Below, piece after piece: positions 1 to 42,613 of a DNA stretch of 64,000 nucleotides. Position 1 is the stretch's first letter. Each line of letters opens with the position of its first letter. The translations under genes and the position numbers were made by a program. Origin of the DNA: Ricinus communis (Eukaryota; Streptophyta; Magnoliopsida; Malpighiales; Euphorbiaceae); the NCBI RefSeq assembly GCF_019578655.1, contig NC_063264.1, positions 11,449,213 to 11,513,212 on the forward strand, in the 5' to 3' direction. Under the pieces are notes generated by a model. The model had not been told where the DNA came from and did not search any database. It saw only the letters and a list, made by a program, of their open reading frames with translations.

Positions 1-52
1 AAAATATAACCTTTTTTTGGTATTGTTTTCTCATATTCAGAAATATACCCCC
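1..52 (+). repeat. 39-bp satellite, left edge piece
   Basis: The first 52 bases carry the same motif as the large array to the right (TTTTCTCATATTCAGAAATA followed by an ACCCC run). They are separated from it by a 223-bp non-satellite insert. The array therefore probably continues beyond the left edge of the window. Confidence 0.8.
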
Positions 53-275
53 CAAGAAAGATGTAGTAGTAAATAAGGATTGGTGCAAAAAAGAGGACGG
101 CCCCTCTTCTTCTCATCATATTAGAGGAGCTTGGGCTCTAAAGCTGGCCTTACTCAACAAGCACCTTTATTACTAAGGTTGCTTCTTTCCACTCATTGAA
201 GATTCTATCTAAAAAAGAAGGTCAATGGGGGATTAACAAAGTGGCTCTCACTAACATCATCTACGAGAAGGTGGA
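53..275. other. Non-satellite insert inside the satellite
   Basis: This 223-bp stretch of mixed composition has no satellite motif, and satellite lies on both sides. I see no long open frame, terminal repeats or target duplication. It could be a captured gene or transposon fragment, or a diverged short element. I do not recognise it. Confidence 0.5.
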
Positions 276-3200
276 ATATCTCATATTCATACATATATCC
301 CTTTTACGGAGTTGTTTACTCATACTCACAAATTTACCCGACTAAGGGGGTTGTTTTCTTATATTGACAAATATACCCCTCTTACGGGGTTGTCGTCTCA
401 TATTAAAAAATATATCCCTTTTATGGGATTGTTCTCTAATATTCACAAATATACCACTCTGACCGGGTTATATTCTCATATTCATAAATATACCCCTTCT
501 ACCAAGTTGTTTTCTCATATTAAAAAAAATGTCCCCTTTATGTGGTTGTTTTATCAAATTCACAACTATACTCCTCTTACAAGGTTCTTTTCTCATATCC
601 ACAAACAGACCTCTTTTACAGGATTGTTTTTTCATATTCATAAATATAGCCGTCTTACGGGGTTGTATTGATTGACAAATCTATCTCTCTTATGGGGTTA
701 TTTTCTCATATTAAAAAATATGCCCCTTTTATGTGGTTGTTTTTTCATACTCACAAATATACCCCTCTTACGGGGTTGTTTTCTCATATTAAAAAATATA
801 ACCCTCTTACGAGCTTGATGCCTCATATTCATAAATATATCCCTTTAATGATGTTGTTAACTCATACTCGCAAATATACGGACTTACGAGGTTGTTTTCT
901 TCTATTAAAAAATATACCCCTTCTTACAGGATTGTTTTCTCATTTTAAAAAATGTACCTCTCTTATGGGATTGTTTTCCAATAGTCACAAGTATACCTTC
1001 TAACGGGGATTATTTTCTCATATTCACAAATATACCCTCTTACGGGCTTGTTTTCTCATATTAATATATTTATCCCTTTTATGGTGTTGTTTTCTCATAT
1101 TCATAAACATACCCCTCATGCGGGGTTGATATCTCATATTCATAAAAATATATCCCTTTTACGGAGTTGTTTACTCATACTCACAAATTTACCCGACTAA
1201 GGGGGTTGTTTTCTTATACTAACAAATATACCCCTCTTACAGGGTTCTCTTCTCATATTAAAAACTATACCCCTTTTATGGGTTTGTTCTCTGATATTCA
1301 AAAATATACCACTCTGATCGCGATATATTCTTATATTCATAAATATACCCCTCTTAACAGATTGTTTTCTCATATTAAAAGATATGCCCTCTTTATGTGG
1401 TTGTTTTCTCAAATTCACAACTATACTCCTCTTACGGGGTTCTTTTCTCGTATTCACAAATATACCCCTCTTATAGGATTATTTTCTCATATTCGTAAAT
1501 ATAGCTGTCTTATGGAGTTGTATTCTAATATTGAAAAATATACCCCTCTTACGGGGTTGTTTTCTCATATTAAAAAATATGCGTCTTTTATACGGTTGTT
1601 TTCTCATACTCACAAATATGCTCCTCTTACGGGCTTGATGCCTCATATTCATAAATATATCCCTTTGATAACGTTGTTTACTCATACTCGCAAATATATT
1701 GGACTTACGGAGTTGTTTTCTTCTATTAAAAAAGATACCCCTTTTACGGGATTGTTTTCTCATTTTAAAAAATGTATCTCTTATAGGGTTGTTTTCCAAT
1801 ACTGACAAATATACCCCTCCAACGGGGGTTGTTTTCTCATATTTGCAAATATACCTCTCTTATAGGGTTGTTTTCTCATATTAATAAATATATCTCTTTT
1901 ATGGTGTTGTTTTCTCATATTTAGAAATATACCCTTTATACGGGTTGATATCTCATATTCATAAATATATCCCTTTTACGGGGGTCTTTCATATTAAAAA
2001 ACATACTCCTCTCTCATATTCATAAATATATCCCTTTTACGGGGGTCTTTCATATTAAAAAACATACTCCTCTCTCATATTCATAAATATATCCCTTTGA
2101 TAACGTTGTTCACTCATACTCGTAAATATACTGGACTTACGGGGTTGTTTTCTTATATTGATAAATATACCACTCTTGCGAGGTTGTTTCTCTTATTAAA
2201 CAATATACCCCTTTTATGTCGTTGTCCTCTCAAACTTACAAATATACCACTTACACGGTTATTTTCTCATATTAATAAATATACCCCTATTACGGGGTTA
2301 TTTTCTAATATTGACAAATACACCCCTTTTATCTGGTTGTTCGATGATACTCATAAATAAACTCTTTTTACGGGGTCGTCTTTGAATATTGACAAATATA
2401 CCCCTCTTTTGGTGTTGTTCTATCATACTTACAAATATACTACTCTTATGAGTGTATTTCTAATATTGACAAATATACCTCTCTTACTAAGATGTTTTCT
2501 CATATTAAAAAATATAACCATATTCCGCTGTTCTTTCCTCATGCATACAAATATACCCCTCTTACGGAGTTGATTTCTCATATTTATAAAAAAAAAAACC
2601 TTTTTCCGGTCTTATTTCCTCATATTCATTAATATATCCCACTTATGGGATTATTTTCTTATATTGACAAATATATCCCTCTTACTAGGTTGTTTCCTAA
2701 TATTAAAAAATATACCCCCTTAATGTGGTTGTCTTCTCAAACTCACAACTATAGTCCTCTTACGGGGTTGTTTTCTCACATTCATAAATATTCTCCTCTT
2801 GCGGGGTTGTTTTCTCATATTCATAAATATACCCCTCTTACGAGGTTGTTTCCTTATATTGACAAATACACTTCTTTTACGGGGTTGTTCTATTATAGTC
2901 ATAAATATACCCCTCTAACGAGGTTGTTTTCTCATACTCACAAATATACCCCTCTTACGGGGTTGTTTTCTCATATTAAAAAATATATCTCTCTTAGAGT
3001 TGTTTTCTCATATTGAAAAATATACTCTTATTATTTGGTTATTTTCTTACATTCACAAGTATACCACACTTACGGGGTTGATTTCTCATATTTATAAATA
3101 TATCCCAATTATGATGTTGTTTCCTCATATTCATAAATATACCGCTCTGACAAGATTGTTTCCTCATATTCACAAATATATCCCTCTCACAGGGTTGTTC

Positions 3201-3524
3201 TCTAATTTTTAGAAATATACCCCTCTTATGGGATTGTTTTCTAATATTAGAAAATATACCCCTTTTACGCAGGTGTTTTATCATACTCACAAGTATACCC
3301 CTCTTACGGGATTGTTTTCTTATAATAAAAAATATACCCCTTTTGCGCCGTTATTTTCTTAAACTCATAAATACACACTCTTACGGGATTGTTTTCTCAT
3401 ATTCATAAGTGTACCACTCTTCTGGGGTTGATTTCTCATATTCATAAATATATCCCTATTACGGCATTGTCTTCTCATACTAAGAAATATACCGCACGTA
3501 TGGGGCTGTTTTTTTATATTGACA
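276..3524 (+). repeat. 39-bp satellite array, block A (plus orientation)
   Basis: Degenerate tandem repeat with a 39-bp period. Each unit has a TTTTCTCATATTCACAAATA half followed by an ACCCCTCTTACGGGGTTG half. Because 39 is 13 codons, the plus strand reads as repeated SHIHKYTPLTGLF. Unit subtypes can be told apart by their central triplets: TATTCACAAA, TATTAAAAAA, TACTCACAAA and TATTGACAAA. Subtypes recur in order, which indicates higher-order repeats. For example, the run beginning near 276 recurs near 1,131, an offset of about 855 bp or roughly 22 units. Open frames in this block are broken by stops and indels every 60-210 residues. They have no signal peptide or domain and are best read as by-products of the period. 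The block ends at an abrupt orientation switch at 3,524/3,525. Confidence 0.95.
1952..2073 (+). repeat. Perfect 61-bp tandem duplication within the satellite
   Basis: Two identical adjacent 61-bp copies (1,952-2,012 and 2,013-2,073). Each begins CTCATATTCATAAATATATC and spans about one and a half satellite units. Neighbouring units differ at many positions, so perfect identity implies a recent slippage or unequal-exchange event. Confidence 0.85.
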
Positions 3525-6500
3525 ACCCGATAAAAGGGGTATATTTTTTAATATGAGAAAACAACACTGTAAGAGGGGTATATTTGTGAGTATGAGAAAA
3601 CACCCGCGTAAAAGGGGTATATCTTTTAATATTAGAAAACAACATTGTAAGAGGGGTATATTTGTCAATATAAAAAAATAACTTCGTAAGTTGGGTATAT
3701 ATGTGATTATAAGTAAACAACACAGTAAAAGCGATATGTTTATATATATGAGAAATCAACCACGTAAGAGGGGTATATTTGTGAATATGAGAAAATAACC
3801 CTATAACTATGGTATATAATTTAATATGATAAAGGAACCCTGTAAGAGGGGTATATTTGTTAATATTAAAAAATAATCCCGTAAGAGGGGTATATTTTGA
3901 GTACGCTAGAATAACCTCGTAAAAGAGGTGCATATGTCAATATAAGTAAACAACCCCGTAATAGGGGTATATTTATGAATTTGAGAAAACAACCTTGTAA
4001 GATGGGCATATGTGAACATGAGGAAACACTATCGTAATTGGGGTATATATTTTCATATGAGAAAACAACCTCGTAAGAGGGGTATATTTTTGAATATGAG
4101 AAAACAACCCCGTAATAAGGGTAGATTTGTGAGTATGAGAAAACAACCCCGTAAGAGGGGTATATTTGAGAATATGAGAAAACAACCATGTAAGAGTGGT
4201 ATATTTGTGAGTACCATAAAACAACCCTAGAGAAAGAGTATATTCTTTAATATCATAAGACAACCCCGTGAGAGGGGCATATTTGTTAATATAAGAAAAT
4301 AACCTCGTAAGTTGGGTATATTTGTGAGGATGATTAGAAAAATACCGTAAAAGGGATACATTTACGAACATGAGAAATCAACCCCCTAAGAGGGTGTATT
4401 TGTGAATATGAGAAATTAGCCTAGTAACAGTAGTATATTTTTTAATATAATAAAACAACCCCGTAAGAGGGGTATATTTGTGAGGATAAGAAAACAACCC
4501 TGTGAGAGGAGTATATTTATGAGTATGAGAAAATAATCCCATAAAAGGGGTATATGAGTATGAAAAAATAACCCCATAAAACGGGTATATTTTTTAATAT
4601 GAGTAATGTCAATATAAGAAAAAAATCCCATAACTTGGGTATATTTGTCAGTATGAAGAAACAACATCGTAAAAGGGGTATATTTGTGAATATAAGAAAT
4701 CAATCCTATAAGAGTAGTATATTTGTCAATATAAGAAAATAACCCCATAAGTCGGGTATATTTGCTAGTATGAGTAAACAATGTCGTAAAAGCAATAATT
4801 TTATGAATATGAGAAGTCAAAGCATCCCCATAACGGCGGTATATCTTTTAATATGATAAAACAACCTCGTAAGAGGGGTGTATATGTGAGTGTGAGAATA
4901 GAATCCCGTAAGAAGGGAAAAATTATGAGTAGGAGAAAAGAATCCCATAATAGGGGTATATTTTTTGATATGAGAAAATAACATCGTAATGTACATTTGT
5001 CATTATTAGAAGACAGCCCCGTAAGTCGGGTATATTTGTTAGTATGAGCAAACAACACCGTAAAAGGGATATATTTATGAATATCAGAAATCAACCCCGT
5101 AAGAGGGGTATATTTATGAATATGAGAAAAGAACCTCGTAAGGGGGGGTATATTTGTGAGTATAAGAAAACAACCTCGTAAGAGAGGTATTAAACCAATC
5201 TTGTAATAGGGGTATATATGAGAGTATGAGAATATAACTCCATAGAAAGGTAAGATTATGAGTATGAAAACAGAACCCCAAACGATAGAGTTATATTTTT
5301 TAATTTGAGAAAACAACGCTTTAAGAGGGGTATATTTTTCATATTAGAAAATAATCCCGTATGTCGGGTATATTTGTGAGTGTGAGGAAACAACATCGTA
5401 AAAGGGGTATATTTATGAATATGAGAAATCAACCCAGTAAGAGTGGTATAATTTTCAATATAAGAAAACAACCCTACAAATTGGATATATTTGTAAGTAT
5501 GTGTAAACAATATGGTAAAAGGGATATATTTATGAATATGAAAAATCAACCCTGTAAGAGGGGTACATTTGTGAGTATGAGAAAATAACCTCATAATAAG
5601 GGTATATTTTTTAATATGAGAAACAACTTCGTAATTGGAGTACATGTATGAGTATGAGGAAAAAATGCCATAAAAGGGGGTATATCTATGATCATAAGAA
5701 ATCAACCTCGTGAGAGGGGTATATTTTTAAATATGAGAAAAATAACCCGGTAAGAGCGGTATATTTATGAGTATGAGAAAATAACCCCATAATAGGGATA
5801 TATTGTTTTAAGATGAGAAAGTAAACTCGTAAATGGAGTACATCTATGACTATGAGTTAACAACACCACAAAAGGGTATATTTATGAATATGAGAAACCA
5901 ACATCGTAAGAGGGGTGTATTTGTGAATATGAGAAAACAACCCGTAAGAGGAGAATATTTATGAGTATGAGAAAACACCCTCATGAAAGGAGTATATGTT
6001 TTAATATGAGAAAATAACCATGTAAGAGGGGTATATTTGCTAAAATTAGAAAACAACCCCGTGAGAGGGGTATATTTGTGAACATGAGAAACCAACATTG
6101 TAAGAGGGGTGTATTTGTGAATATGAGAAAATAACCCGTAAGAGGAAAATATTTGTGTGTATGAGAAAATACCCTCATAAAAGGAGTATATGTTTTAATA
6201 TGAGAAAATAACTACGTAAGAAGGGTATATTTGTTAAAATTAGAAAACAACCCTGTGAGAGGGGTATATTTATGAACATGAGAAAACAACCTCGTAAGAG
6301 GGGTATATTTGTGAGTATGTGAAAACAATCATGTAAAAGAAGTATATTTTGTAATATGAGAAAACAACCCTGTAAGAGGAGTAAATTTATGAATATGAGG
6401 AAACAACATCGTAAAAGGGGTATATTTATGAATATGAGAAATCAGTCTTGTAAGAGTGGTATATTTGTCAATATCAGAAAACAACCCCATAATAGGGGTA

Positions 6501-9500
6501 TATTTGTGAGTATGAGAAAACAACCCCACAATAGGGGTATATATTTTTAGTTTGAGAAAACAACCCCGTAATTGCAATATATTTGTGAGTATGAGAAAAC
6601 AACATCGTAAAGGGGTATATTTGTGAATATAAGAAATCAACCTCGTGAGAGGGGTATATATGTGAATATGAGAAAAACAACCCCGTAAAAGGGGTATATT
6701 TGTAAGTATGAGAAAACACCAGTGTAAAAAGAGTATTTTTTTTTAATATGAAAAAACAGCCCCATAAGAGGGGTATATTTGCAAAAATTAGAAAATAATC
6801 CCGTGAGAGTGGTATATTTTTAAATATGAGGAAACAACCCTGTAACTGGAGTATATTTGTAAGAATTAGAAAACAAACCCGTGAGAGTGGTATATTTTTA
6901 AATATGAGAAAACAACCCCGTAAGAGGGGTATATTTGTGAATATGAGGAAACAATATCGTAGAAAGGGTATATTTATGAACATGAGAAATCAACACTGCA
7001 AGGGGGATATATTTTTGTGAGTATGAGAAAACAACTGCGTGAATGGAGTATATTTGTGAGTATGAGTTAACAATGCCGTAAACAGGCTATATTTATGAAT
7101 ATGAGAAATCAACCTCCTAACAGGGATATATTTTTGAGTATGAGGAAACAACCCTATAATAGGAGTATATTTTTTTAATATGGTAAAAGAACCTCGTAAG
7201 AGGGGTATATTTGTGAATATGAGAAAATAACCCCATAAGAAGGTTATATTTGTGAGTATGAGAAAACAACTGCGTAATAGGGTTAAATTATTTAATATGA
7301 GAAAACAACCCCTTCATAGGGTATATTTGTTAATAGAATAAAACAACCTCATAAATAGAGTATATTTATGAGTATAAGAAAACAATGCCATAAAAGGGGT
7401 ATAATTATGAATATGAGAAATCAACCACGTGAGAGATGTATATTTGTGAATGTGAGCAAATAACCCCGTAAGAGGGTTATATTTGTGAATATAAGGAAAC
7501 AATATCGTAAAAGGGGTATATTTATGAATATGAGAAATCAACCTCGTAAGAGAGGTATATTTGTCAGTATAAGAAAACAACCTCGTAAGTCGGGTATATA
7601 TGTGAGTATGAGTAAAAAATATCGTAAAAGGGATATATATATGAATATGAGAAATCAACCCCATAAGAGGGCTATATTTGTGAATATGAGGAAACAACCC
7701 CATAATAGGGGTATATTTTTTAATATGAGAAAACAACTCTATCATTGGTGTATATTTGTGAGTATGAGAAAACAACCCCGTAAAAGAGGTATATTTATGA
7801 ATATGAGAAAAAAAATTTGTAAGAAGGTTATATTTGTGAGTATGAGAAAACACCCGCGTACAAGGGTTATATTATTTAATACGAGAAAACAACCCCTTTA
7901 GAGGGTTATATTTATTAATAGTAGAAAACAACCCCGTAAGTGAAGTATATTTGTGAGTATGAGGAAACAACATCGTAAAAGAGATATATTTATGAATATG
8001 AGAAATCAACCTCGTAATTATGGTATATTTGTGAATATGAGTAACCAACCATGTAAGAGGGGGTATATATATGAATATGAGACAAGAACCCCGTAAGACG
8101 GGTATATTTGTGAGTATGAGAAAACAACCCCGTAAGAGGGGTATATTTGTGAATATGAGAAACCAACCCAGTAAGAGGAGTATATATGTGAGTATGACAA
8201 TAAAACCCCGTAAGAAGTGCAAAATTGTGAGTATGAGAAAAGAACCCGATAATAGGGGCATATCTTTTTATATAAGAAAATAACATCATAAGAGGTGTAC
8301 ATTTGTCATTTTTATAAGGCAACCCTATAAGTTGGGTATATTTGTTAGTATGAGCAAACAACGCCGTAAAAGAATATTTATGAATATCAGAAATCAACCC
8401 CGTAAGAGGGAATATTTATGAATATGAGAAAACAACCTCATAAGAACGGTATATTTATGAGTTTGAGAAAACAACCTCATAAAAGGGGTATATTTTTTAA
8501 TATGAGAAAACAACCCCATTAGAGGGTAATAATTGTCAATATAAGAAAACAAACCCCATAGTCGGGTACATTGGTGAGTATGAGTAAACAATACCGTAAA
8601 AAGGGTATATTTATGAACATCAGAAATCGACCTCGTTAGAGGGGTATATTTATGAATATGAGAAAACAACCTCGTAAGAGGAGTATATTTGTAAAAATTT
8701 AAAAATAACCTTGTAAGAGAGGTATATTTGTGAATATGAGAAAACAACCGTGTAAAAGTGGTACATTTTTTAGTATGAGAAAATAAACACATAAGAGGGG
8801 TATATTTGTTAAAATTAGAAGACAACGACGTAAGAGGGGTATATTTGTGAATATGAGAAAACAACTCCATTGGAGGGATATATTTGTAAATATGAGGAAA
8901 CAACGTCGTAAAAGGGATATTTATATGAATATGAGAAATCAACCCCATAGGAGGGGTATATTTGTCAATATAAGAATTCAACCCCGTAAGGGGGGTATAT
9001 TTGTGAATATGAGAAAACAACCTTGTAAGTAGGATATATTTGTATGTATGAGAAAACAATCGCGTAACTGGGGTATATTTCCTAATATAAGAAAATAACC
9101 CAGTAAGAGGGGTCTATTTGTAAATATAAGAAAACAACCCCGTTAGAGGGGTATATTTGTGAATATGAGATTACAACCCCGTAAGAGGGTTATGTTTGTG
9201 AATATGAGAAAACAACCCCATAATAGGAGTATATTTCTTAATATGAGAAAACAACCCCGTAAGTCGGGTATATTTGTTAGTTTGAGTAAACAAGGCCTTA
9301 AAATGGAGATATTTATGAATATGAGGAATCAAACCCATAAGAGGGATATATTTATGACTATGATAAAACAATCCCGTAAGAGGGGTATATCTTTTAATAT
9401 AAGAAAACAAGCCGTAAGAAGGGTACATTTGACAATATTAAAGTACAACCCTATAAGAGGGGTGTCTCTATGAGTATGATAGAATAACCCCGTAAAAGGA

Positions 9501-10052
9501 GTATATTTGACAATACAAGAAAATAACCTCATGAGCGAAGTATAATTATGAATATAAGAAAGCAACTCCGTAAGAGGGGTATATTTGTGAATATGAGAAA
9601 CCAACCCCGTAAGAGGGGTATATATGTGAATATGAGAAAAGAACCCCGTAAGAATTGTATATTTGTAAGTATGAGAGAACAAACCCATAATAGGGTTCTA
9701 TTTTTTAATATGAGTAAATAATCTCGTAAGTGGGGTATATTTGTGAGTATAAGAAAACAACCCCATAATTAGGGTATATTTTTTAATATAAAAAAAAACC
9801 TCGTAAGAGGGTATAAAGTTAAATATCAGAAAAGAAAAGCGCATGAGGGCTACATTTGTCATTATTAGAAAACAACTTCATAAGTTGGGTATATAAATTA
9901 GTAAGAGTAAACAGTGTCGTTAAAAGGATATATTTATGAATATGAGAAATCAACCCTATAAGAGGGGTATATTTGTGAATATGAGAAAACAATCCTGTAA
10001 GAGGGGTATATTTATGAGTTTGAGAAATAACCCCATAAAAGGGGTATAATTT
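3525..10052 (-). repeat. 39-bp satellite array, block B part 1 (minus orientation)
   Basis: The same satellite as block A in reverse complement: units read GAGAAAACAACCCCGTAAGA then GGGGTATATTTGTGAATAT. The plus strand reads as repeated MRKQPRKRGIFVN, and the minus strand gives the SHIHKYTPLTGLF reading, with open runs up to about 220 residues (8,394-9,059). The ordered subtype string HKYIPFT-M/V-LF then THTNKYTRLTGLF then SYIDKYTPLTGLF recurs many times, for example near 5,050, 5,470, 7,600 and 8,560. This indicates a higher-order repeat shared with the plus blocks. The block is interrupted at 10,052 by a solo LTR with target duplication. Confidence 0.95.
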
Positions 10053-10917
10053 TGATGAGAACTCATGTAGCACATGAAATCCTACTCCAACAAGGAATCC
10101 TAATGATGTAAATCCTACTTGCTAAAGGAATCCTACTTTAACAAGGAGTCCTAATTTCATCGGGAATCCTAATCCAGCAAGGAGTCCTAATGACATTAGG
10201 AGTTCAAGCGATAAAAGGAATTCTATTTCCACTAGAAATCCTAATCCAACTAGAAGTCATAGTCAAATTCAAAGTCCAAGTGAGATTGGGCTTAATCAAA
10301 ACAATGGCCTCAAGATAGTCTTATCAACTTAATCCAACAAGATAAGCTCAAAATAAACAAGTCAAGCTATCTGGAGTCCAATACTCAAGAATGGACCGCA
10401 TCTCACAAGCTACTTAAGCCCAATAGTCATGTTTATTTAATGGGCTTAGGTTGGACGAATTATAGAAGTATTTGTTCATTTAAATAAGTCTTTTAATAGT
10501 TAGGACTCTTTTTTTAAGTTATCCTTTTAGTTTAGGAATTCTATTCCTAGTCTTATTGTTATTTGCTTCCTTATTATTGTAAAACTAGATTTTTCTAAGG
10601 CCTATATAAGCTAGTACGAATTTCCATGTAAAAAGAGTTATTAAATATTGATTGTTTTGGAGTTAATTCTCTTCTTTTTTTCTTATGAACTTGGTGAATT
10701 TATCAAGTGAAGACTTGGTATTTTACAACTTAGTTTAATCTAAACTTTTGTTTATATCAAATGAGTTTTAATTCTTTATAATTAAGGTTCTTAAGTACAA
10801 GTTATTTAAGGGTCTTGTTGGGAGTTTTAAATTTTTTTGCTTGAGTAGGTGAACGACCCTTGGTGAAGCCATCAACATTGAATATGGATTTGGCACAAGT
10901 TAGCCACATTCGTATCA
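10053..10917 (+). mobile_element. Solo LTR of a gypsy-type retrotransposon, with TSD
   Basis: An 865-bp segment runs from TGATGAGAACTC to ATTCGTATCA and is flanked by the perfect 5-bp direct repeat AATTT (10,048-10,052 and 10,918-10,922). Joining the flanks would give an ordinary satellite unit. No PBS, polypurine tract or coding region is present, so this is a solo LTR left by LTR-LTR recombination. The left third holds 22-24-bp subrepeats with the core AAGGARTCCTAAT. The same subrepeats occur in the LTRs of the element at 40,590-43,503, so the two belong to one family. A TATA-like CCTATATAAG lies near 10,599. Ends and duplication are seen directly. The gypsy assignment comes from the related element. 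Confidence 0.85.
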
Positions 10918-11601
10918 AATTTTTAATATGAGAAAATAACCCCATAAGAGGGGTATATTTATTAATTTAAAAAAATAACCCCATAAATCAGGTATATTTA
11001 TAAGTACGAGTAAACAACGCCATAAAAGGGATATATTTATAAATATGAAAAAACAACACCATAAGAGGTGTATATTTATGAATATGAAAGAACAAACTGG
11101 TAACAGGGGTATATTTTTTAATATGAGAAAACAACACCGTAAAACGGGTATATTTGTGAATATGAGAAAACAACCTCATAAGAGGGGGTATAATTATGAC
11201 TATGAGAAAACAACTCCATAATAGGGGTATATTTTTTTAATATGAGAAACTAACCCCGTAAAAGGGGTATATTTGTGAGTATGTGAAAACAACCCCATAA
11301 TAGGGGTATATTCTTTAATATAAGAAAACAACCCTGTAAGAGAGCTATATTTGTCAATATAAGAAAATAATTCTGTAAGTTGGGTATATTTGTGAGTATG
11401 AGTAAATAATGCCGGAAATATATTTATAAGTATGAGAAATTAACCCAGTAAGAGGAGTATATTTGTGAATATAAGAAAACAACCCCGTAATAGGGATATA
11501 TTTTATAATATGAGAAAACAACCACGTAAGAGGAGTATATTTGTCAAAATTCAAAAACAACCCTTTAATAGGGATATATTTGTGAGTATGAGAAAACAAC
11601 C
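10918..11601 (-). repeat. 39-bp satellite array, block B part 2 (minus)
   Basis: Continuation of the minus-oriented satellite after the solo LTR, with the same units (GAGAAAACAACC...GGGGTATATT). It ends where a truncated copia-like element begins near 11,602. Confidence 0.92.
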
Positions 11602-11666
11602 AAGAAAGATAGGCAACTCACAAGTATAGCCGTTGCGTGCTTATTCTTGTGGGCATCTATCCATTC

Positions 11667-11852
11667 TTATCTAGGAAGGATTCTTTCTTCACCATTCTTT
11701 ATTTCAGTGGGAGCTTTCCATTCCTTCACCATATAGTCCCACACTTCAATGCCATAAGAATCGAAGTAGATTTCCATACAAAATTTCCAACATGCATAGT
11801 CAAATCTGTCAAAGAACGGCTTAAGGTGTTGAGCTCCTTCATTGGTTGCCAT
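11667..11852 (-). pseudogene. N-terminal gag fragment, copia type
   Basis: A 61-codon frame begins with ATG just after the primer site. It reads MATNEGAQHL, then FFDRFDYACWKFCMEIYFDS, then VWDYMVKEW. The pattern of an aromatic-rich 'FD/N-Y-x-x-WK-x-x-MEIY' stretch followed by 'VWDxV' is typical of the N-terminal capsid segment of plant copia gag proteins (DUF4219/UBN2 type). Full gag proteins of this type are several hundred residues long, so this is a small 5' remnant. The frame ends in a stop and satellite follows within about 65 bp. It would be non-functional. Confidence 0.65.
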
Positions 11853-11883
11853 GATTTTTACACTCGTAATTAATCTTGATAAG

Positions 11884-11906
11884 AGTGAACTTGTTCTAAT
11901 ACCACT
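11884..11906 (-). other. Primer-binding site (degenerate Met-tRNA type)
   Basis: On the minus strand, AAGTGGTATTAGAACAAG directly follows the LTR end. It resembles TGGTATCAGAGC, the usual plant initiator-Met tRNA primer site, with C-to-T and G-to-A changes. Confidence 0.6.
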
Positions 11907-13063
11907 TGTTGTCCTTTGGAACTAAGAATGGGGGTTGAATTGGTCACTTCAAATTTCAAAAATTAATGATTTTAGGTAAAAGCACAAGAGGTTAAGGGTT
12001 AGCGAAGATGATACAAGGGTTTATAGTGGTTTAGGAACAAACTTCCCTACATCCACTCCTCAATATCACACTTGAGTATTTCACTATAATCACTAAGATT
12101 ACAAACCTTTGGATTTTACAATTTCACCCAATAACTTGGTGTTTTCAAGCCTCAGACTATCAATCTCTCACTAAGTCCCTTAACCCTTAAGTATAATTGG
12201 TTACTCAACAACCAATTCCTTATGTTTTCAATACCTAGGCTCATATAACAACCTTTTTGAGTTTTAGTTGAACAAAGAGTTTCAACTTAATACACTTTAT
12301 AAGAAAGAAATTAGTGTAGAAAGTTAAGAAATAAGTTTGCAAGAGTTTTGGTATATCTAAATCACATACTTAGTTGTAGAGTCTTTACGAGGGATATTTA
12401 TACACATATCAACCCCTTAGAAACGTTATAATAAGGCCAAATCTCTTTAATTGCAAGATTTTGATAACTTGGCAAAAGTTTCCTAAAGTCATGGAAAGCA
12501 TCCCTGCTGTCTCCAAGCGCGCTCACGCTTTCTAGAAAGAGACATTGGGCTCCAGCAGCTCTAGCCACATGCCACTGATAGGGTGGCAGAAATCTCATTG
12601 GTTACTGTCATCGCATTAATTATGAAAACTATCCTACTGCCACAACAGCGCCCTCGCGCTTGCCTTATTCGAGTCTAGAACCGCCCTCATGCTTCTTACC
12701 ACGCTATCATCTGCCAGTTTTTGTCTCCAGTCCTAAAGTGAGGTTCCCTCACTCTTTTGAAGCGCCCTCGTGCTTCTTGAAGCTTTGACATCTTGACTGC
12801 CAAGTGTCATGAGGCAATTGGCCTACTGTGAGGTGAACTTTTCAATGTCATGAAAACTTTTGTTCATGTGAAAAGCGCCCCCGCGCCTTGAAAACGACCT
12901 CGCGCTTTTGGGGTCTTTGTATAAGACTTGCTTTAAGGTTCAAGAATGTTTAGTCTAAGCTTGGTTCCTTTGCTGCTCTGTCACATAGACACTCAGTCAT
13001 GATGTTAGTGATAATGAATTTGGTCGTTAGGATCAAAATAGAGATCAATTGCCCCTTAGGTCA
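11907..13063 (-). repeat. LTR of the truncated copia-like element
   Basis: On the minus strand it ends ...CCAAAGGACAACA, adjacent to the primer site. It contains several copies of a GCGCCCTCGCGCTT-like motif (12,520-12,900). The outer end is set approximately at the return of satellite sequence near 13,064. The only long open frames inside it are spurious. Confidence 0.5.
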
Positions 13064-13358
13064 ATATGGTATATTTGTGAATATGAGAAAACAACCCCGT
13101 AAAAGGGGTGTATTTGTTATTATTAGAGAATAATCCCGTAAGAGGGGTATATTTGTGAATATGAAAAAAATCCCGTAAGAGGGGTATATTTATGAGTATC
13201 AGAACACAATCCCATAAAAGAAGTATATTTTTTAATATGATAAGACAACCCTGTAAGAGGGGTATATTTGTCAATATGAAAAAAAACCCCGTAAATCGGG
13301 TATATTTGTGAGGATGATTAAAAAACGCCGTAAAAGGGATATATTTATGAATATGATA
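13064..13358 (-). repeat. 39-bp satellite array, block B part 3 (minus)
   Basis: Minus-oriented satellite units between the copia fragment and the second orientation switch. At 13,358/13,359 the sequence changes from ATATATTTATGAATATGA directly to TATTGACAAATATACCCC. Confidence 0.92.
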
Positions 13359-16300
13359 TTGACAAATATACCCCATTTACGGAGTTATTTTCTCATATTA
13401 AAGAATATACAACTGTTATGGAGTGGTTTTCTCATACTCATAAAATACCCTTCCTACGGGGTTAGTTTTCTCATATTCATAAATATACCTCTCTTACACG
13501 GTGGTTTTCTCATATTCACAAATATAACTCTCTTACGGGGTTGTTTTCTTATATTGAATAAATATATCCACAAATATACCCCTTTTATCAGGTTGTTCTA
13601 TCATACCCACAAATATACCCCTTCTTACAAGGGTTATTTTCTCATATTAAAAAATATACCCATTTTAGGAGGGTGGTTTCTCATACTCACAAATATACCC
13701 GTCTTATGGGGTTGTTTTCTCATATTAAAAAACATACCCCTATTATGGGGTTGTTTTCTCATACTTACAAATATAGCCTACTTAGGAGGTTGTTTTCTTA
13801 TATTCACAAATGTACCCCTCTTACGGAGTTATTTTCTTATAGTCACAAATATACCCCTTTTACGGTGTTGTTTCCTCGTACTCACAAATATACTATAGTT
13901 TTAAGGTTGCTTTCTTCTATTAATAAATATACCCCTCTAAACGAGTTTTTTTCTCATATTATAAAATATGCCCCTTTTACGCGAATGTTTTCTCATACTC
14001 ACAAATGTACCCCTCTTATAGGATTGTTTTCTCATATTAATAAATATACCACTTTCCGGGATTGATTTCTGATATTCACAAATATATGCCTCTTATGAGG
14101 TTATTTTCTTTTATTCATAAATACACTCCTTTTATGAGGTTGTTGTATCATCCTCACAAATATACTCCTCTTACGGGGTTGTATTCTAATATTGTTAAAT
14201 ATACTCCTCTTACCTGGTTGTTTTCTCATATTAAAATATATACTCCTCTTAAGGGTTTATTTTCTCGTATTCACAAATATACCCATCTTACAGGGTTGTT
14301 TTCTCATATTCACAAATATACTGCTCTTATGGGGTAATTTTTTATTATATTGACAAATATACCCCTTTACGTGGTTGTTCTATCATACTCATAACAAATA
14401 TACCCCTATTATGGGCTTGTTCTCTAATATTGACAAATATACCCCTCTTACGGGATTATTCTTTCATATTAAAAAATATACCCCTGTGACGGGGTTGTTT
14501 TCTCATATTCACAAATATACCCCTCTTACAGGTTTGATTTCTCATATTCATAAATATATCCATTTTACGGTGTTGTTTAGTCATATTCACAATTTTATCC
14601 CTGTTATGGGGTTGTTTACTCATACTCACAAATATACCCGACTTACAAGGTTATTTTCTTATATTGACAAATATACCCCTCTTATAGGGTTCTTTTGTCA
14701 TATTAAAAAATATACCTCTTTTTATAGAGTTATTTTTTCAAACTCACAAATATACCTCTCTTACGTGTTTCTCTTCTCATATTCACAAATATACCCCACT
14801 TACAGGTTTGATTTCTCATTTTCACAAATATACTCCTCTTTCGGGATTATTTTCTCATCTTCACAAATATACTCCTCTTACGGGGTGCTTTTCTCATATT
14901 TATAAATATATCCCTACTATCGGATTATTCTCTCATGTTCACAAATACACCGCCCTTACGGGGCTTTTTCCTTATATTGATAAATATACCCCTTCTACGA
15001 GGTTGTTTTATCATAATCATAAATATACCCCTCTTACGGGGTTGTTTTCTAATATTGATAAATGTACCCCTCTTATGGGGTTGTTTTCACAGATGAAAAG
15101 ATATTCCCTTTTATACAAATATTACAAGGTTGTTTTGTCATATTCATAAATATACCCCTATTATAGGATTGTTTACTTATATTAACAAATATATCGCTCT
15201 TATGGGGTGTCTTTTCTTATATTGATAAATATACCCTTTTTATGGGATTGTTATATCATACTCACAACAAATATATCCCTCTTATGCAATTATTTTCTAA
15301 TATTGAAAAATATACCCATCTTATTAGATTGTTTTCTTATATTAAAAAATATACCACTTTTATGGGGTTGATTTCTCATACTCACAAATATACCCCTCTT
15401 ATGGGGTTGTTTTTTGACACTCATAAATATACCCCTCTTACTGGGTTGTTTTCTCATATCCATAAATATACCGCTGTTACGGGGTTGTTTTCTCATATTA
15501 AAAAAAATACCCCTCCTATGGGGTTGTTCTCGTATTTAAAAATATGCCCCTATTCTAGGTTGTTTTCTCATACTCACAAATCTACCCATCTTACGGGGTT
15601 GTTTTCTTATATTAAAAATATACCCCAATTGTAGGGTTGTTTTCTCATAGTCACAAATATACCCCTCTTACGAGATTGTGTTCTCATATTCACAAATATA
15701 CCTCTCTTATGGGGTTGTTTTCTCATTTCACAAATATACCCCTATTACGAGGTTGTTTTCTGAAATTCACAAATATGCCGCTCATATGTGGTGTTTTATC
15801 TCACATTGACAAATATACCCCTTTTACGTTGTTGTCCTATAATACTCACAACAAATATACCCTTTCTAAGTTGTTTTCTCATATTAAAGAATATACGCCT
15901 CTTAGGGTTGTTTTCTCATATTAAAAGAATTACCCTATTATGGGACTTTTTTCTCATACTCACAAATATACCTCTCTTACAGGGTTGTTTTTTCATATTA
16001 AAAAATATACTCCTATTATGAGGTTGTATTCTTATATTCACAAATATACCCCACTTACGGGGTTGATTTCTCATGTTCATAAATATATCCCATTTACGAT
16101 GTTTTTTCCTCATATTCATAAATGTACCGCTCTTACGATGATATTTCCTCATATTCACAAATATATCCCTCTTATGGGCTTTTTTACTAATTTTTATAAA
16201 TATATCCCTCTTACGGGGTTATTTTCTCATATTAAAAAATACGCTCTTTTTACGCGGTTGTTTTCTTAAACTCACAAATACCCACCTCTTACGTTATTTT

Positions 16301-18268
16301 CTCATATTCACAAATATACCCCTCTTACGGTGTTCATTTCTCATATTCATAAATATACCTCTATTACGGCGTTGTTTCCTCATACTATACCCTTCTTACG
16401 AGGTTATTTTGTCATATTAAAAGATATACCTCTTTTATGGGGTTAGTTTCCAAAGCTCACCAATATACCACTCTTACGGGGTTGTTTTCCTATATTTACA
16501 AATATACCCCTCATATGGGGTTACATTCTCATATTCACAAATATACCCATCTTACTAGGTTGTTGTCTTAAATTGACAAATACACCTTTGTTATGGGATT
16601 ATTTTCTCATATTAAAAAATATACCCCTTTATACGGTTGGTTTCTCATACTCACGAATAGAGCCCTCTTATGGGGTTGTTTTCTCAAATTCACAAATATA
16701 CTCCTTTTATAGGGTTTATTTCTCATATTAATAAATATATTCGTTTTATGACGTTGTTTACTAATACTCACAAATACACCCCTCTTATAGGGTTGTATTC
16801 TCGTATTAAAAAGTATACCCCTATCATGGGTCTATTTTCTCATACTAAAAAATATACCCCTTTTACGGGTTGTTTTCTCATATTTAGCAATATGCCCCTC
16901 TTATGGGTTGTTTTCTTATATTCACAAATATACCCCTCTTACACGGTTGTTTTCTCATATTCACAAATATACCACACTTACGGGTTTGATTTCTCATATT
17001 CATAAATATATTGTTTTTACGGCGTTGTGTACTCATACTCAAAAATAGAGCTGACTTACGGGGTTGTTTTCTTATATTGACAAATATACCCCTCTTACGG
17101 GGTTGATTTCTCATATACATAAATATATTCCTTTTACGATGTTGTTTACTCATACTAACAATTATACTAGACTCTTGGGGTTGTTTTCTAATACTGACAA
17201 ATATACCCTTTTATGGGGCTGTTTTCTCATATTAAAAAAATATCTCTATTATGCAGTTATTTTCTAATACTCGCAAATATACCCCTCTTATGGGGTTTTT
17301 TTCTCATATTAAAAAATATATCCCTATTATGGGGTTGTTTTCTTCATACTCACAAATATACCTCTCTTCCAGTGTTGTTTTCTCGTATTAAAAAATATTC
17401 CCTTTTTACGGAGTTGTTTTCTCATTTTCACATATACACCTCTATTACGGGGTTGTTTTCTCCTATTCATAAATATACCGCTCTTACGAGGTTTTTTTCT
17501 TATATGGACAAATATACTCTTTTTACGGGATTGTTCTATCACTCACAAATATATTTCTCTTATGAGGTTGTTTTCTAATATTGACAAATATATCCCTCTG
17601 ACGAGGTTGCTTTCTCAAATTGAAAAATATGCCCTTATTACGGGGTTGTTTCTTATATTTACAAATATACCGCTCTTAGAAGGTTGACTTCTCATAATCA
17701 CAAATATATCCCTTTTATGGTGTTGTTTACTCATACTCACAAACATACCTGACGTACGGGGTTGTTTTCTTATATTGAAGAATATAACCTTGTTACGAGT
17801 TTGTTTCCTTATATTAAAAAAGACCCCTGTTATGGGGTTGTTTCCTCAAACTCAAAAATATACTCTTCTTCCATGGTTGTATTCTCATAGTCACAAATGT
17901 AACCCTCATACGGTGTTGATTTCTCATATTCATAAATATATCGCTTTTACAGTGTTGTTTACTCATACTAACAAATGTACCCGACTTATTGTGTTATTTT
18001 CTAATATTGACAAATATACTCCTCTTACGGGCTTGTTTTCTCATATTAAAAAATATACCCCTCTTACGGGGTTGTTCTCTCATATTAAAAATTATACCGT
18101 AATTATGGGGTTGTTTTCTAATACTCACAAATATACCTCTCTTTTGAGGTTATTTTCTCATATTAAAAAATGTACCCCTATTATCAGGTTGTTTTCTCAT
18201 ACTCATAAATATACCCCTCTTACGGGGTTATTTTCTAATATCCACAAATATACCCTTAAAACGGGGTA
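13359..18268 (+). repeat. 39-bp satellite array, block C part 1 (plus)
   Basis: About 4.9 kb of plus-oriented satellite with the same unit subtypes as block A. The run HIHKYIPFT-x-LF, THT-x-KYTRLTGLF, SYIDKYTPLTGLF appears near 14,560, 17,100 and 17,930, matching the higher-order pattern in block B. A variant with an extra CAA triplet (CTCACAACAAATATA) recurs near 14,390, 15,260 and 15,850, and again after the next insertion. This marks a further sub-lineage of units. Confidence 0.95.
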
Positions 18269-18289
18269 TATTTAATTAAATTGGGATGA

Positions 18290-21047
18290 TGTAAAATTGA
18301 ATTTTAATGCTAGATACAAATAAAGGGTTTATTTATATGTATCTAATTAGTTTGATTTTTCAAGAAATTAATTAAGTGAATTCTATAGAGTATAAATTAT
18401 ATTTTTTTATATATATAGGTCACTCATATTTTCTCCCAATATGAATTAAATATTATATTTGAAAGTTATGAAAGAAAATAATATTCTTATAAAACAATTT
18501 ATTAAGGAAAATTAGCAATGGTGTTGGATTAAATTGGAAAATAGTCAACAAATTAGTTAGTTAAGTTAATTAAGTATTAGGATTAATTTGTCAATTAATT
18601 ATGAAATAAGGGCTAAAAGTATAATTGCATTAATATGGGATTTAAATGAGAATATCATGGTTGGTATTTTTGTAATTAAATATGTCGGTAAGGGCGTTTT
18701 AGTAATTTCTCCATTAAAAGCAAGGGTAATTAGGTAACTCTCTATTTTTAATATTGTAATTTGGCCAAAATTAAGTAGTTAGGGGCTTAATTGAAATGCT
18801 ACAGAAAAGTTGGAGGGTTAAACAAGAATTCTCTAGGAGAAATTGTTAGTAATTAGAAAGATGAGGGACTAAATGGTTATTCAGCAAAAATCAAAGGACC
18901 ATTTTGCGATAAGGAAAGAAATAAAGGAAGGAGAATCGGAGAAGAGGGAGAGGGAGGAGCTGCCGTCTGTGGCAAGTGGAGAACTAGGCCACTCAAGGCG
19001 CAGTGGCGATGGCTGGCGGAAGAGCAGACGCGAGCGAGTTCAGCAATAGCGGTGGTGGCAGTGACCGGTGAAGAAGAAAAAATAAGAGAGGCATCACTGT
19101 TTGACGTCGTGCATGGCATCTTCGACGGTAACGGTGGTCGAGTCGGGTGGCGATCAACTCGCTTGAGTGTGGGCTTCCTTTTAGGAGCAGCAGCGACACA
19201 AATGGCGGCCGGAGAAAGGCGTGTTCGGCGAAGGAGTTTTTGAGTATGCAGCCGGAATTTTAGGCTTCTTCTAGTGAGTTCCCACGAAGGATGGCCGATC
19301 AAAAGGCATATCTGAACTTCCCTCAGCTCAAGCTTTCCAATGGCACTAGTTTTGCAGTGATCGAACTCTGTTTAAAAATCGACAACCAAGATTGTCCGTG
19401 AATTTCTCCAAATGATCGGGGGTAAAATCAGAGGATTGTAAATTTCTCCAGAAAGCAACCCTGTAAAATCTGCACATTATCTCGAGTCCGTAGGCGTGCT
19501 CAGATCATCGATCAGACTCTAGTGGTTGGAGGCAAGTTGACCGATTGATCAAGCGTCTCGGTAACTCTCTAGCCCGTTGATTTTAGAGTTTGTTGATAAA
19601 AAGTTATTTGATTAATTATTGTGTTGAACAATAGAAAAATTATGTGAGGATTGATAATAGTATGTTAGGCCGTCAGCCAATAATCGTAATTTCTGATGTG
19701 TTGCAGAGTTAGGAAAAATAATATAATTTTGGTGGCCCGACTCCCGTTAATTAGTTTTTGAAAATTAGAAGTGTTTCTGGCAAGTCCTAGACCCATTTTA
19801 CGGGAGGGTAAACGTTCGTATTTTAGGGGAAGTTCTATCGAACTTTCGGTAGAATTTCTGAATCGAAATTCTTAGACAGCCAGTTTTAGGAGTCTAGACC
19901 TAAGGTTATTTATTAATGTTTTACTTTTTTTGATTGAATTATTCCCATGAATAGATAATCCATCATTTCAACTCGCTCCACTCGAGGTTTAGGAGTAGAG
20001 CAAGGAGGTCATCAGAACTGTGAGTTAAAGTCATATATCTGTTATACATATGTCTCGCAAAGATCTTAAATATTAATTCTGATTAATTGATGTATAGATT
20101 TGAATTATTCATTTATTTACTATTCATATTTAAATTTCTACATCATTGATATTATGTTTGCATGTTGACTTGGGATGAGATGGCAGTAGAACATGCCACC
20201 TGAAGGGTTGCATCAAGACCGCATGTGCACCGGTATGAATCTGAGACAGGTAGTAAAAGAATGATTTAGGACTTGCCCTGGTTGAGTTTAACTCTCTAGG
20301 CTGTACAGAGTATGTTTGTCTGAGTAAAGGTCCTTGGTCCAGTGTTGCTATCTAGGCGACGGCTTTATTGGAAATTGAGTGATCAGATTGGATTTAAGGA
20401 CCCTGGTCGAGCTCCGCTCTCTGGGTGCCAATCTTGTTAGAGTGAGAGAGCTTAAAGGCTAAGACTGTTAGTGTTGGGAATTAGGGTTCTGCTGGGGTAC
20501 TCGTTCCGTAGTATGAAAAGAAAATTATTTTATAGTAGCATGGCATGACACGTGTTTTTGCATGACTTAGTATTTTATTTTAATTAAACAAATATTTTAT
20601 TGAAGTGTTTGTATTTGTTTTTGGATATATGATTTTAACTCACTCTCGAGACTGACAGTCTCAAATTTAACTGATTTTCAAGTGTTTATAAGTTTTTCGC
20701 AGTTCTTTCCCTATAGCAGCCCGACTTCCTCCATCTTTGGGTTCTAATGTAACTGATTTTATTAGTATGTTTGACTTTTAAGATTCTATATTCTCCATAG
20801 TAGAAGTTTCAAAACTTATCATCTTGTAATTGCATATAAATTCAGGTTTTGCCTGATTATGCTGGCAGACCGAATTAAATATGTATTATCTGATGGTTAA
20901 AGGTTAGTTATGGAATAGTGCTAAAACAGAATATGGATTACATCTTGAGTGAGTTAGTGAAATGTCAAGCTTACTAAGAGATTTGGTGGCCTTAAGTCTA
21001 CCCATTCCATAATATCAGTCACGGGCCCACAAATCAGAATCGTGACA
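18290..21047 (+). mobile_element. Large solo LTR (about 2.8 kb), gypsy-like
   Basis: Non-satellite DNA inserted in block C. It begins TGTAAAATTG and ends GAATCGTGACA, so it has TG...CA ends. The layout resembles plant chromovirus LTRs: an AT-rich left part, a GC-rich block (18,940-19,240), and a right part with ACTCACTCTCGAGACTGACA near 20,638, similar in style to the LTRs of the elements at 26,549 and 44,560. No primer site, polypurine tract or retroviral domain is visible. The short frames in the GC-rich block look spurious. I could not find a target duplication, so the exact ends are uncertain by tens of bases. The segment 18,269-18,289 is unassigned. Confidence 0.55.
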
Positions 21048-22007
21048 TTTCATATCACAAATATAACGCTTTTATGGGGTGTTTTCTCTTATATTGACAA
21101 ATATACCCCTTTTATAGGGTTGTTCTATCATACTCACAACAAATATATCCCTCTTACGGGGTTGTTTTCGCATATTCATAATATACCCCTGTTATAGAGT
21201 TATTTTCTCATATTCACAAATATACCCCTCTTACGGGGTTGATTTCTCGTATTCATAAATATATCCCTTTTACATTATTGTTTACTCATACTCTCAAATA
21301 TACCTGACTTACTGGATTTTTTTCTTATATTGAGAAGTATACCCCTCTTACAGGGTTGTTTTCTCATATTAAAAAATATACCCCTTTTATGGCGTTGTTC
21401 TCTCAAACTCACAAATAAACTCCTATTACTAGAATGTTTTATCATATTAACAAATATACTGCTCCTATGTGGGTTTTTCTCCTATATTGACAAATATACC
21501 CCTATTACGGGGTTGTTCTATCATACTCACAACAAATATACCCCTCTTATGAGGTTCTTTTCTAATATTTATAAATATACCTGTCTTACATGATTGTTTT
21601 CTCATATTAAAAATATACCTCTGTTACAGGGTTGTTTTCTTCTATTCACAAATATACCCCTCTTATCGGGTTGATATCTCATATTCATAAATATATCACT
21701 TTTACGACATTGTTTATTTATACTCACAAATATACCCGACTTATGGGGATGTTTTATTATATTGAGAAGTATACCTTCTTACGAGGTTGTTTCCTCATAT
21801 TAAAAAATATACCTCTCTTGTGGTGTTGTTTTCTCATATTAAAAAATATACTCCTTTTATGACATTATTTTCTCAAACTCACAAATATACACCCATTACT
21901 GAGTTGTTTTCTAATATTCATAAATATATCGCTCTAATAGGGGGTTTTCTCTTATGTTGACAAATATACCCCTTTTACCGGATTGTTCAATCATACTCAC
22001 AATAAAT
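21048..22007 (+). repeat. 39-bp satellite array, block C part 2 (plus)
   Basis: Plus-oriented satellite resumes after the solo LTR, with the same CAACAAATATA unit variants (21,135, 21,530). It ends by merging into a 26S rRNA fragment near 22,008. The exact join is blurred because both sides share a TTCCCCTTTT-like stretch. Confidence 0.93.
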
Positions 22008-22621
22008 ATTCCCCTTTTCATCCTTCAAAGTTCTCATTTGAATATTTACTACTATCACTAAGATCTGCACTGATGGCCGCTCTGCCTGGGCTCGCGCCCT
22101 GGTTTTTGCAGCAACCGTCGCGCCCTCCTACTCATCGAGGCCTAGCTCTTGCCTCGACGACTGGGTATAGGTCGCGCGCTTAAGCGCCATCCATTTTTGG
22201 GGCTAGTTGATTCGGTAGGTCAGTTGTTACACACTCAACGGATTTCGACTTCCATGATCACTGTCTTGCTGTCTTAATCGACCAACACCCTTTGCGGGTT
22301 CTAGGTTACCGCGCAGTTGGGCATCATAACTTGGCTTCCAGTTCATCCTACATTGCCAGTTCTGCTTACCAAAAATGGCCCAGTTGGAGCACTTGATTCC
22401 GTGGCTCGGCTCAATGAAGCAGCCGTGCCGTCTTACCTATTTAAAGTTTGAGAATAGGTCGAGGGCATTGCACCCCCGATGCCTCTAATCATTGGCTTTA
22501 TCCGATAAAACTCATCCTAAGCTCCAGCTATCTTAAGGGAAACTTCAGAGGGAACCAGCTACTAGACGGTTCGATTAGTCTTTTGCCCCTATACCCAAGT
22601 CAGATAAACGATTTGCATGTA
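22008..22621 (-). pseudogene. 26S rRNA fragment (internal 5' third), decayed
   Basis: The reverse complement matches conserved plant 26S rRNA. Recognisable landmarks on the plus strand are TTCAAAGTTCTCATTTGAAT, GGGGCTAGTTGATTCGG, TTAATCGACCAACACCC, ATGGCCCAGTTGGAGCACTT and AGGGAACCAGCTACTAGACG. The fragment stops after ACGATTTGCATGT. Small deletions (for example after TTGTTACACACTC) and many C-to-T or G-to-A changes at sites that are CG in functional genes show that it is a non-functional, formerly methylated copy. Neither the 3' part of 26S nor the 5.8S/18S genes adjoin it. Confidence 0.92.
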
Positions 22622-25490: not shown

Positions 25491-25986
25491 GGGAGGGACG
25501 AATAAGAGCGACAAAGGGCTGAATCTTAGTGGATCATGGCAGCAAGGCCACTCGGCCACTTACAATATCCCATCGCGTATTTAAATCGTCTGCAAAGGAT
25601 TCAGTCCATCGCCCGATGGAAATTGTAATTCAAGGCGGCTCGCGCAGCTCGTCCATCGTGAGGGCTTAGCCAACGACATATGCTTTTGGGGGCTGGAAGG
25701 CCCCTACTGCTGATCGGCAAACGAGTAGTGGATAACACATCGATTCTGGTCCGGATTCTGACTTAGAGCCGTTCAGTCATAATCCACCACACAGTAGCTT
25801 TGCGCCACTGGCTATTCAGCCAAGCGCGATGACCAATTATGCGAATCAACTGTTCCTCTCGTATTAGGTTGAATTAGCATTGCAACACAATCATCAGTAG
25901 GGTAAAATTAACCTATCTCATAACTATCTAAACCTACCTCATGTTCTCTATTGGTGGGTGAACAATCCAACAGTTGGTGAATTCTA

Positions 25987-26029
<43 letters not shown>

Positions 26030-26062
26030 AACATCGCTACGAACACTTGGCTACCACAAGCT

Positions 26063-26095
<33 letters not shown>

Positions 26096-26386: not shown

Positions 26387-26548
26387 CAGTGGCTGGCTGG
26401 CGTGCGAGGATTCTCGCTAACAGGCCTGATGGGTGTGCTGCCTCAGTAATGGGGGGCTAGCATTCAAGGATTCCTTGCCAACTGGCCCAATGGGCGGGCT
26501 GGCTAGCACGCGATGTTACTTGCCAACCGGCTCATGCATGCGGGCTAG
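26387..26548 (-). repeat. Second block of ~60-bp spacer-type repeats
   Basis: Two to three units of the same repeat as 24,261-24,960 and in the same orientation. GTAATGGGGGGCTAG (26,446-26,460) matches GTAATGGGGGGCTGG near 24,746. The block sits between the cut 5' side of the 26S fragment and the truncated gypsy LTR, so the rDNA here is rearranged. Confidence 0.75.
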
Positions 26549-28291: not shown

Positions 28292-28297
28292 TTTTAG

Positions 28298-42610: not shown

Positions 42611-42613
42611 AAA

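What the first reader, a model, noticed from the sequence alone, without database searches (positions are those of the whole stretch)
1..22007. Very short-period (39-bp) satellite array open on both strands
Over 17 kb of satellite with a 13-codon period reads as SHIHKYTPLTGLF on one strand and MRKQPRKRGIFVN on the other. Satellites with so short a period, so much unit diversity and this length are uncommon in plants, where monomers are often nucleosome-sized. It could be a lineage-specific centromeric, pericentromeric or subtelomeric family.
Basis: partly seen in the sequence, partly recalled or inferred. Interest (0 to 1): 0.75.

Follow-up and report, generated by a model that had tools for sequence, protein, structure and literature searches.

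The report
Castor bean's 39-base heterochromatin satellite
This is an abundant satellite DNA of the castor bean plant, a non-coding 39-base unit repeated in long arrays with reversed stretches; such a repeat is already in print for castor, and what is added here is how the arrays seem to grow, by copying blocks of many units rather than single units.

Summary
Window 2-22016 carries 16,680 bp (433 monomers, 419 complete) of a 39-bp satellite, consensus TTTCTCATATTCACAAATATACCCCTCTTACGGGGTTGT, 81-86% identity per block, changing orientation twice and split by four interruptions. Shuffled DNA gives nothing. The genome is wild castor, Ricinus communis WT05. The family is extrapolated to 7-8 Mb (about 2.5%) of the assembly, clustered on at least C1, C2, C3, C4 and C9; the densest zone seen is about 1.1 Mb near the middle of C2. 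C5-C8 and C10 were not properly surveyed.

It is not new. A 2013 survey reports 39-nt motifs as 69.57% of castor tandem repeats, and a 2016 cytogenetics paper (seen only as a citation) covers castor's major repeats; I recall its name rcsat39. Most likely it is ordinary constitutive heterochromatin DNA.

Coding is not supported (no constraint; 39 is a multiple of 3), nor is selection on the two palindromes (no clear covariation). One informative result: neighbouring monomers are less alike than shuffled ones, while similarity returns at lags of many monomers, so arrays seem to be copied in blocks of about 0.1-2 kb. Subtypes differ between chromosomal places. Whether any array binds CENH3 cannot be told here.

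The parts
2..51 (+). satellite piece, 39-bp unit
   Evidence: 84% identity; joins the array that continues left of the window (L036:8425-10000)
52..278 (.). non-satellite interruption (227 bp)
   Evidence: no convincing target-site duplication seen
279..3525 (+). satellite block, about 83 monomers, 81% identity
3522..3525 (.). inversion joint (+ to -), 4-bp overlap of the two readings
3522..10055 (-). satellite block (two abutting segments 3522-4606 and 4608-10055), about 168 monomers by TRF, 83% identity
10053..10917 (.). probable solo LTR (TG...CA) with 5-bp target-site duplication AATTT at 10048-10052 and 10918-10922, inserted in the satellite; dispersed family
   Evidence: ends and duplication read by eye; near full-length copy at 83% in L043
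10920..11601 (-). satellite block, 84% identity
11602..13067 (.). non-satellite interruption; its last 0.5 kb is 69% like a stretch of L040
13068..13356 (-). satellite block, 86% identity
13356..13356 (.). inversion joint (- to +)
13356..18267 (+). satellite block, about 126 monomers, 83% identity
18268..21049 (.). inserted dispersed element; pieces of a relative (70-82%) lie between satellite blocks in L036:5641-8408, and pieces at 67-72% outside satellite in L033
   Evidence: its exact ends and a target-site duplication were not established
21050..22016 (+). last satellite block, 82% identity; right end of the array
   Evidence: none beyond in the window

Best explanation
The feature is part of the major 39-bp satellite of Ricinus communis, non-coding DNA most likely packaged as constitutive heterochromatin in clustered, often mid-chromosome arrays. 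Shown: sequence, period, inversions, insertions, rough abundance, clustering and neighbour dissimilarity with long-lag similarity. Inferred: arrays grow by duplicating blocks of several to tens of monomers (unequal exchange or circle-mediated reinsertion), then age by point mutation (highest at the CG site, as expected of methylated DNA), inversion and retrotransposon insertion. Any role is structural, through chromatin, not through an encoded product.
For: Species: an L032 ORF is 97% identical to an R. communis protein; among the 120 listed hits the best other named organism is Populus at 59%, an unnamed cluster has 69%. matK is closest to Acalyphoideae. C1 of 36,693,184 bp and 315.5 Mb match WT05, 36.69 Mb and 316.11 Mb. 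Abundance: 19,858 places with at most 3 of 38 mismatches, 0 for the reversed control; at 80 places per 31,508 bp of satellite in window+L035+L036 this is about 7.8 Mb; 932 exact 36-bp places at 4 per 31,508 bp give about 7.3 Mb. Clusters: 63 of the 81 C2 places among the first 100 of 174 lie in 17.99-19.08 Mb, as do 17 of all 33 D-type places; 3 of 5 samples of 0.8 kb there are satellite. Neighbours less alike than in shuffled order: lag-1 z -4.3 window, -4.6 C9, -6.6 C2/C4/C71, -6.2 g/h loci, while similarity returns at long lags within single loci, e.g. lag 46 mean 0.863 in L009 and lag 35 mean 0.856 in L004. Transitions 0.255 at the CG site, 0.194 CHG, 0.144 CHH, 0.043 at A/T.
Against: No chromatin, methylation, FISH or CENH3 data could be examined. 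The CG contrast rests on two columns (CHG on one) and is mixed with subtype differences. Arrays are also scattered outside the main clusters. Long-lag lengths are irregular and the window itself shows only weak ones (best z 2.6). In the g/h loci lag 3 is also raised (z 4.7), so short blocks occur too. The 20 loci were picked by an exact match. C5-C8 and C10 were not properly surveyed.
Confidence: 0.77

Rival explanations
1. It is the functional centromeric satellite: the densest array on each chromosome carries CENH3 nucleosomes.
For: A dense zone of about 1.1 Mb near the middle of C2 with many orientation changes; clusters at 15.15-15.33, 17.03-17.21 and 17.86-18.21 Mb of the 36.7-Mb C1 and at 11.41-11.47 and 12.89-12.93 Mb of the 28.2-Mb C9. 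Subtypes differ between places.
Against: Several separated clusters per chromosome, also within 1.1-1.5 Mb of chromosome ends on C2 and C4; the window's array shows little recent homogenisation. No other candidate repeat was looked for genome-wide. No CENH3 data.
Confidence: 0.15
2. The repeat is a minisatellite carried inside a transposable element and spread by it.
For: Many dispersed arrays; inverted blocks as in long terminal inverted repeats. By eye, the same 11 bases CCAAGAAAGAT stand at two array edges, 52-62 and 11600-11610.
Against: The one insertion with readable ends (10053-10917) went INTO the satellite, its target-site duplication lying in satellite sequence. The four interruptions do not match each other at E 1e-10, beyond themselves and other dispersed copies. 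A Mb-scale zone on C2. Array edges elsewhere in the genome were not compared.
Confidence: 0.06
3. The two palindromes in each unit (ATATT-CACA-AATAT and ACCCC-TCTTAC-GGGGT) are kept as hairpins or cruciforms.
For: Both stems are perfect in the consensus. At pair 10-15 complementary double changes are 9 against 3.0 expected.
Against: Over 1,994 complete monomers the ten stem pairs rank 113 to 734 of 741 column pairs in mutual information; complementary double changes at the other nine pairs are near expectation, e.g. 42 against 38.0, 47 against 57.9.
Confidence: 0.03
4. The open frames encode a repeat protein.
For: The SHIHKYTPLTGLF frame has fewer stops than column-independent expectation (125 against 156; stop-making changes 0.56 of expected).
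Against: Synonymous changes are at 0.90 and non-synonymous at 1.04 of expectation in that frame, so no purifying selection; any 39-mer without a stop stays open because 39 is 13 codons; strand flips and indels break it.
Confidence: 0.01

Closest known systems
Castor bean 39-nt tandem repeats (PMC3887541; and the major castor repeats of Alexandrov and Karlov 2016, recalled name rcsat39)
   Same: Same species, same period, dominating the tandem-repeat fraction in that survey; I recall that the 2016 abstract assigns rcsat39 to heterochromatin by FISH.
   Different: The monomer sequence was not seen in either, so letter-for-letter identity was not tested. Block-wise copying, subtype differences between places and inversion joints were not in the passages read.
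VicTR-B of Vicia (38 bp; PMC2543021, passages)
   Same: Nearly equal period; in its VG-V subfamily monomers are 78% alike and 186-bp higher-order units 89%.
   Different: Different lineage; a regular 186-bp unit in that subfamily, whereas the castor lags seen are irregular, about 3 to 60 monomers. Sequences were not compared.
SiCEN1 of sesame (153 bp; PMC13398907, passages)
   Same: A satellite zone used to mark centromeres.
   Different: Another species and period; considered only while the first protein search pointed to Sesamum.

Membership tests
Castor major 39-bp satellite | Host is Ricinus communis | tested here: met
   97% ORF match; assembly statistics of WT05
Castor major 39-bp satellite | 39-nt period, dominant among tandem repeats | tested here: met
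   Period. Abundance. Dominance is from PMC3887541, not measured here
Castor major 39-bp satellite | Monomer identical to the published rcsat39 | not testable with these tools
   The 2016 paper is not held; no held paper contains the name
Castor major 39-bp satellite | Heterochromatic location by FISH | not testable with these tools
   Recalled only
Centromeric (CENH3) satellite | One dominant array per chromosome at the primary constriction | tested here: inconclusive
   Dense zone on C2, several clusters on C1 and C4; C5-C8 and C10 not surveyed
Centromeric (CENH3) satellite | CENH3 enrichment | not testable with these tools
   no ChIP data
Subtelomeric satellite | Arrays next to chromosome ends | tested here: not met
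   For the window's array, at 11.4 of 28.2 Mb on C9, and for the main clusters seen; some arrays lie 1.1-1.5 Mb from ends of C2 and C4

The most novel reading that the evidence does not exclude
Castor's centromeres are built on a 39-bp satellite whose real unit of turnover is a drifting, irregular block of tens of monomers; neighbouring monomers stay unlike each other because copying acts on multi-monomer blocks, and each chromosome keeps its own block set. Surveys that drop periods under 50 bp (as PMC4053949 did) would have missed it.
Probability: 0.15. Interest if true: 0.5.

Novelty: already known. Interest (0 to 1): 0.27.

Why it matters
The family itself is known. Its arrays are useful because the units are short and diverse enough to read the history of copying directly: here homogenisation seems to skip the single monomer. 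If CENH3 sits on the C2 array, castor would be a case of a functional centromere on a sub-nucleosomal unit.

Tried and rejected
Hairpin selection: not supported. Coding: rejected. Element-borne minisatellite: not supported in this window. Sesame as host: suggested by the first protein search (79-81% to Sesamum), dropped after matK and the 97% Ricinus match. One regular higher-order unit was looked for and not found: lag 11 has z 3.4 in C2/C4/C71, 1.6 on C9 and -2.2 in the g/h loci; lag 3 has z 4.7 only in the g/h loci. Two decompositions without a score cap ran across the insertions and were replaced. Searches counted some monomers twice, because L008, L009 and L010 overlap by about 1 kb each; one search repeats 53, 59 and 110 without the overlaps (2,149 monomers, 1,994 complete, 1,646 gap-free; L005 dropped in all of them as it overlaps L004). 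The conclusions stand, but the lag-46 peak of the pooled C2/C4/C71 group was due to the overlap and is withdrawn; the lag-46 value of L009 alone is not affected. The DNA similarity search of the genome returned nothing; the tool says it skips very common words. Papers: PMC3887541 (passages, one section), PMC13398907 (passages, outline), PMC4053949 (one passage), PMC11300327, PMC9510866, PMC9824742, PMC9183113, PMC2543021 (passages), PMC8056531 (no occurrence of satellite, tandem repeat, centromere, 39-bp); others only as search listings.

Full report
Observation. Tandem Repeats Finder reports period 39 over most of 280-22002, and a circular profile decomposition places 16,680 bp of satellite in the window, in eight segments (seven blocks, two segments abutting at 4606/4608) between 2 and 22016, with 81-86% identity to TTTCTCATATTCACAAATATACCCCTCTTACGGGGTTGT. 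Of 433 monomers 419 are complete; 417 of these 419 are distinct, and the mean difference over 5,000 sampled pairs is 27%. Three dinucleotide shuffles and the remaining 42 kb of the window give no segment. The orientation changes at about 3522 and 13356. The array is interrupted at 52-278, 10053-10917, 11602-13067 and 18268-21049.

Host. The first protein search, with a reverse transcriptase ORF, pointed to Sesamum at 79-81%. A full-length plastid-type matK in the assembly is nearest to Acalyphoideae of the Euphorbiaceae, 93% to a cluster represented by Chrozophora. An ORF from C9:9.5 Mb is 97% identical to an R. communis protein; among the 120 listed of 1,725 hits the best other named organism is Populus at 59%, and an unnamed cluster has 69%. 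The assembly has 315.5 Mb in 140 contigs and a C1 of 36,693,184 bp; the wild castor WT05 paper gives 316.11 Mb and a largest chromosome of 36.69 Mb (PMC9510866 passages; it counts 146 scaffolds). I take the genome to be WT05.

Genome-wide. A 38-bp consensus with up to 3 mismatches has 19,858 places (9,659 forward, 10,199 reverse; reversed control 0). In window, L035 and L036 together 80 such places occur over 31,508 bp of satellite, which extrapolates to about 7.8 Mb or 2.5%; the 932 exact 36-bp places, at 4 per 31,508 bp, give about 7.3 Mb. The densities of L001-L020, chosen because they hold an exact match and partly overlapping, range from 179 to 961 bp per place, so the estimate is rough. 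Lists of places are capped. All listed 36-bp places lie on C1: 15.15-15.33, 17.03-17.21 and 17.86-18.21 Mb, with scattered ones to 28.25 Mb. A 35-bp form has 174 exact places; of the first 100, which are listed, 13 are on C1, 81 on C2 (63 in 17.99-19.08 Mb), 3 on C3 and 3 on C4. Two longer subtype patterns gave complete lists: 33 places (C1 1, C2 20, C4 10, C9 2) and 6 places (C2 3, C4 1, C9 2). No listed place is on C5-C8 or C10, but no general pattern was listed that far, so absence is not shown. In 0.8-kb samples 3 of 5 at C2:18.15-18.95 Mb and 1 of 7 around the window (C9:11.410) are satellite. Of 20 ten-kb stretches on C9, the 17 away from the window and L037 immediately right of it have none; L035 and L036 immediately left of it do.

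How it evolves. Monomers fall into subtypes by columns 5, 9, 11 and 13 with a non-random order: over all sampled loci E-D-G-A-D and C-E-D-G-A each occur 10 times, loci at C4:3.05-3.45 and 17.05 Mb are rich in D and E, and those at C1:15.15-15.17 and C4:9.33 Mb consist mostly of the g and h types. Adjacent monomers are less alike than in shuffled order in every group tested (lag-1 z -4.3 window, -4.6 C9, -6.6 C2/C4/C71, -6.2 g/h; blocks of 30 or more monomers, end monomers left out, overlapping loci trimmed). Similarity returns at long lags in some loci: L004 lag 35 mean 0.856, L002 lag 33 0.857, L009 lag 46 0.863, L008 lag 43 0.832. Monomer-by-monomer unequal exchange predicts the opposite, so the copied unit is more likely a block of several to tens of monomers; lag 3 is raised in the g/h loci (z 4.7) and lag 11 in the C2/C4/C71 loci (z 3.4), so block length is not fixed. 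The window's own array shows this only weakly (best z 2.6) and is probably old. Transitions are commonest at the CG site (0.255; CHG 0.194; CHH 0.144; A/T 0.043), consistent with methylated DNA, on two columns only.

What it is not. Over 1,994 complete monomers the ten stem pairs of the two consensus palindromes rank 113 to 734 of 741 column pairs in mutual information; only pair 10-15 shows an excess of complementary double changes, 9 against 3.0. In the SHIHKYTPLTGLF frame non-synonymous changes are at 1.04 and synonymous at 0.90 of expectation; stops are somewhat fewer than expected (125 against 156), which I report as the only trace in favour of coding.

Prior work. PMC3887541 (passages and one section) gives R. 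communis the highest tandem-repeat density of 31 species, 55,454 bp/Mbp, and 69.57% 39-nt motifs. Alexandrov and Karlov 2016 (Mol Genet Genomics 291:775-787) was seen only as a reference; that it names rcsat39 and places it in heterochromatin is recalled. No paper of the library holds that name. Melters et al. excluded periods under 50 bp (one passage). VicTR-B, 38 bp with a 186-bp higher-order unit in one subfamily, shows that the kind has precedents (passages).

Verdict. A real, abundant, already reported castor satellite. Most likely role: bulk constitutive heterochromatin. A centromeric role for the densest arrays is possible and untested.

Noticed in passing
window 22068-22554 (-) and 25704-26358 (-): Two fragments of large-subunit rRNA (427.9 and 228.5 bits), the first right beside the end of the satellite, the second near GC-rich repeats at about 24.1-26.5 kb (by eye) that may be spacer-derived.
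   Followed up: partly
window 26547-35427: Ty3-type LTR retrotransposon: direct repeats about 7.13 kb apart at 98-100% identity, with protease, RT, RNase H, integrase and chromodomain matches between them.
   Followed up: partly
window 46979-50813 (-): A second, split Ty3-type pol region.
   Followed up: no
window 41003-43499: Diverged direct repeats, in part related to the solo LTR at 10053-10917.
   Followed up: no
window 52-62 and 11600-11610: The same 11 bases CCAAGAAAGAT stand at two satellite edges whose satellite runs in opposite orientation (by eye); chance or a shared junction is open.
   Followed up: no
L021 (G000:C7:186912-187904) and 51 further matches: Many matK-like pieces across the assembly, one full-length without stops: probably plastid DNA insertions.
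   Followed up: no
L038 (G000:C9:12000001-12010000): 500 N, an assembly gap or withheld stretch, between the two C9 satellite clusters.
   Followed up: no
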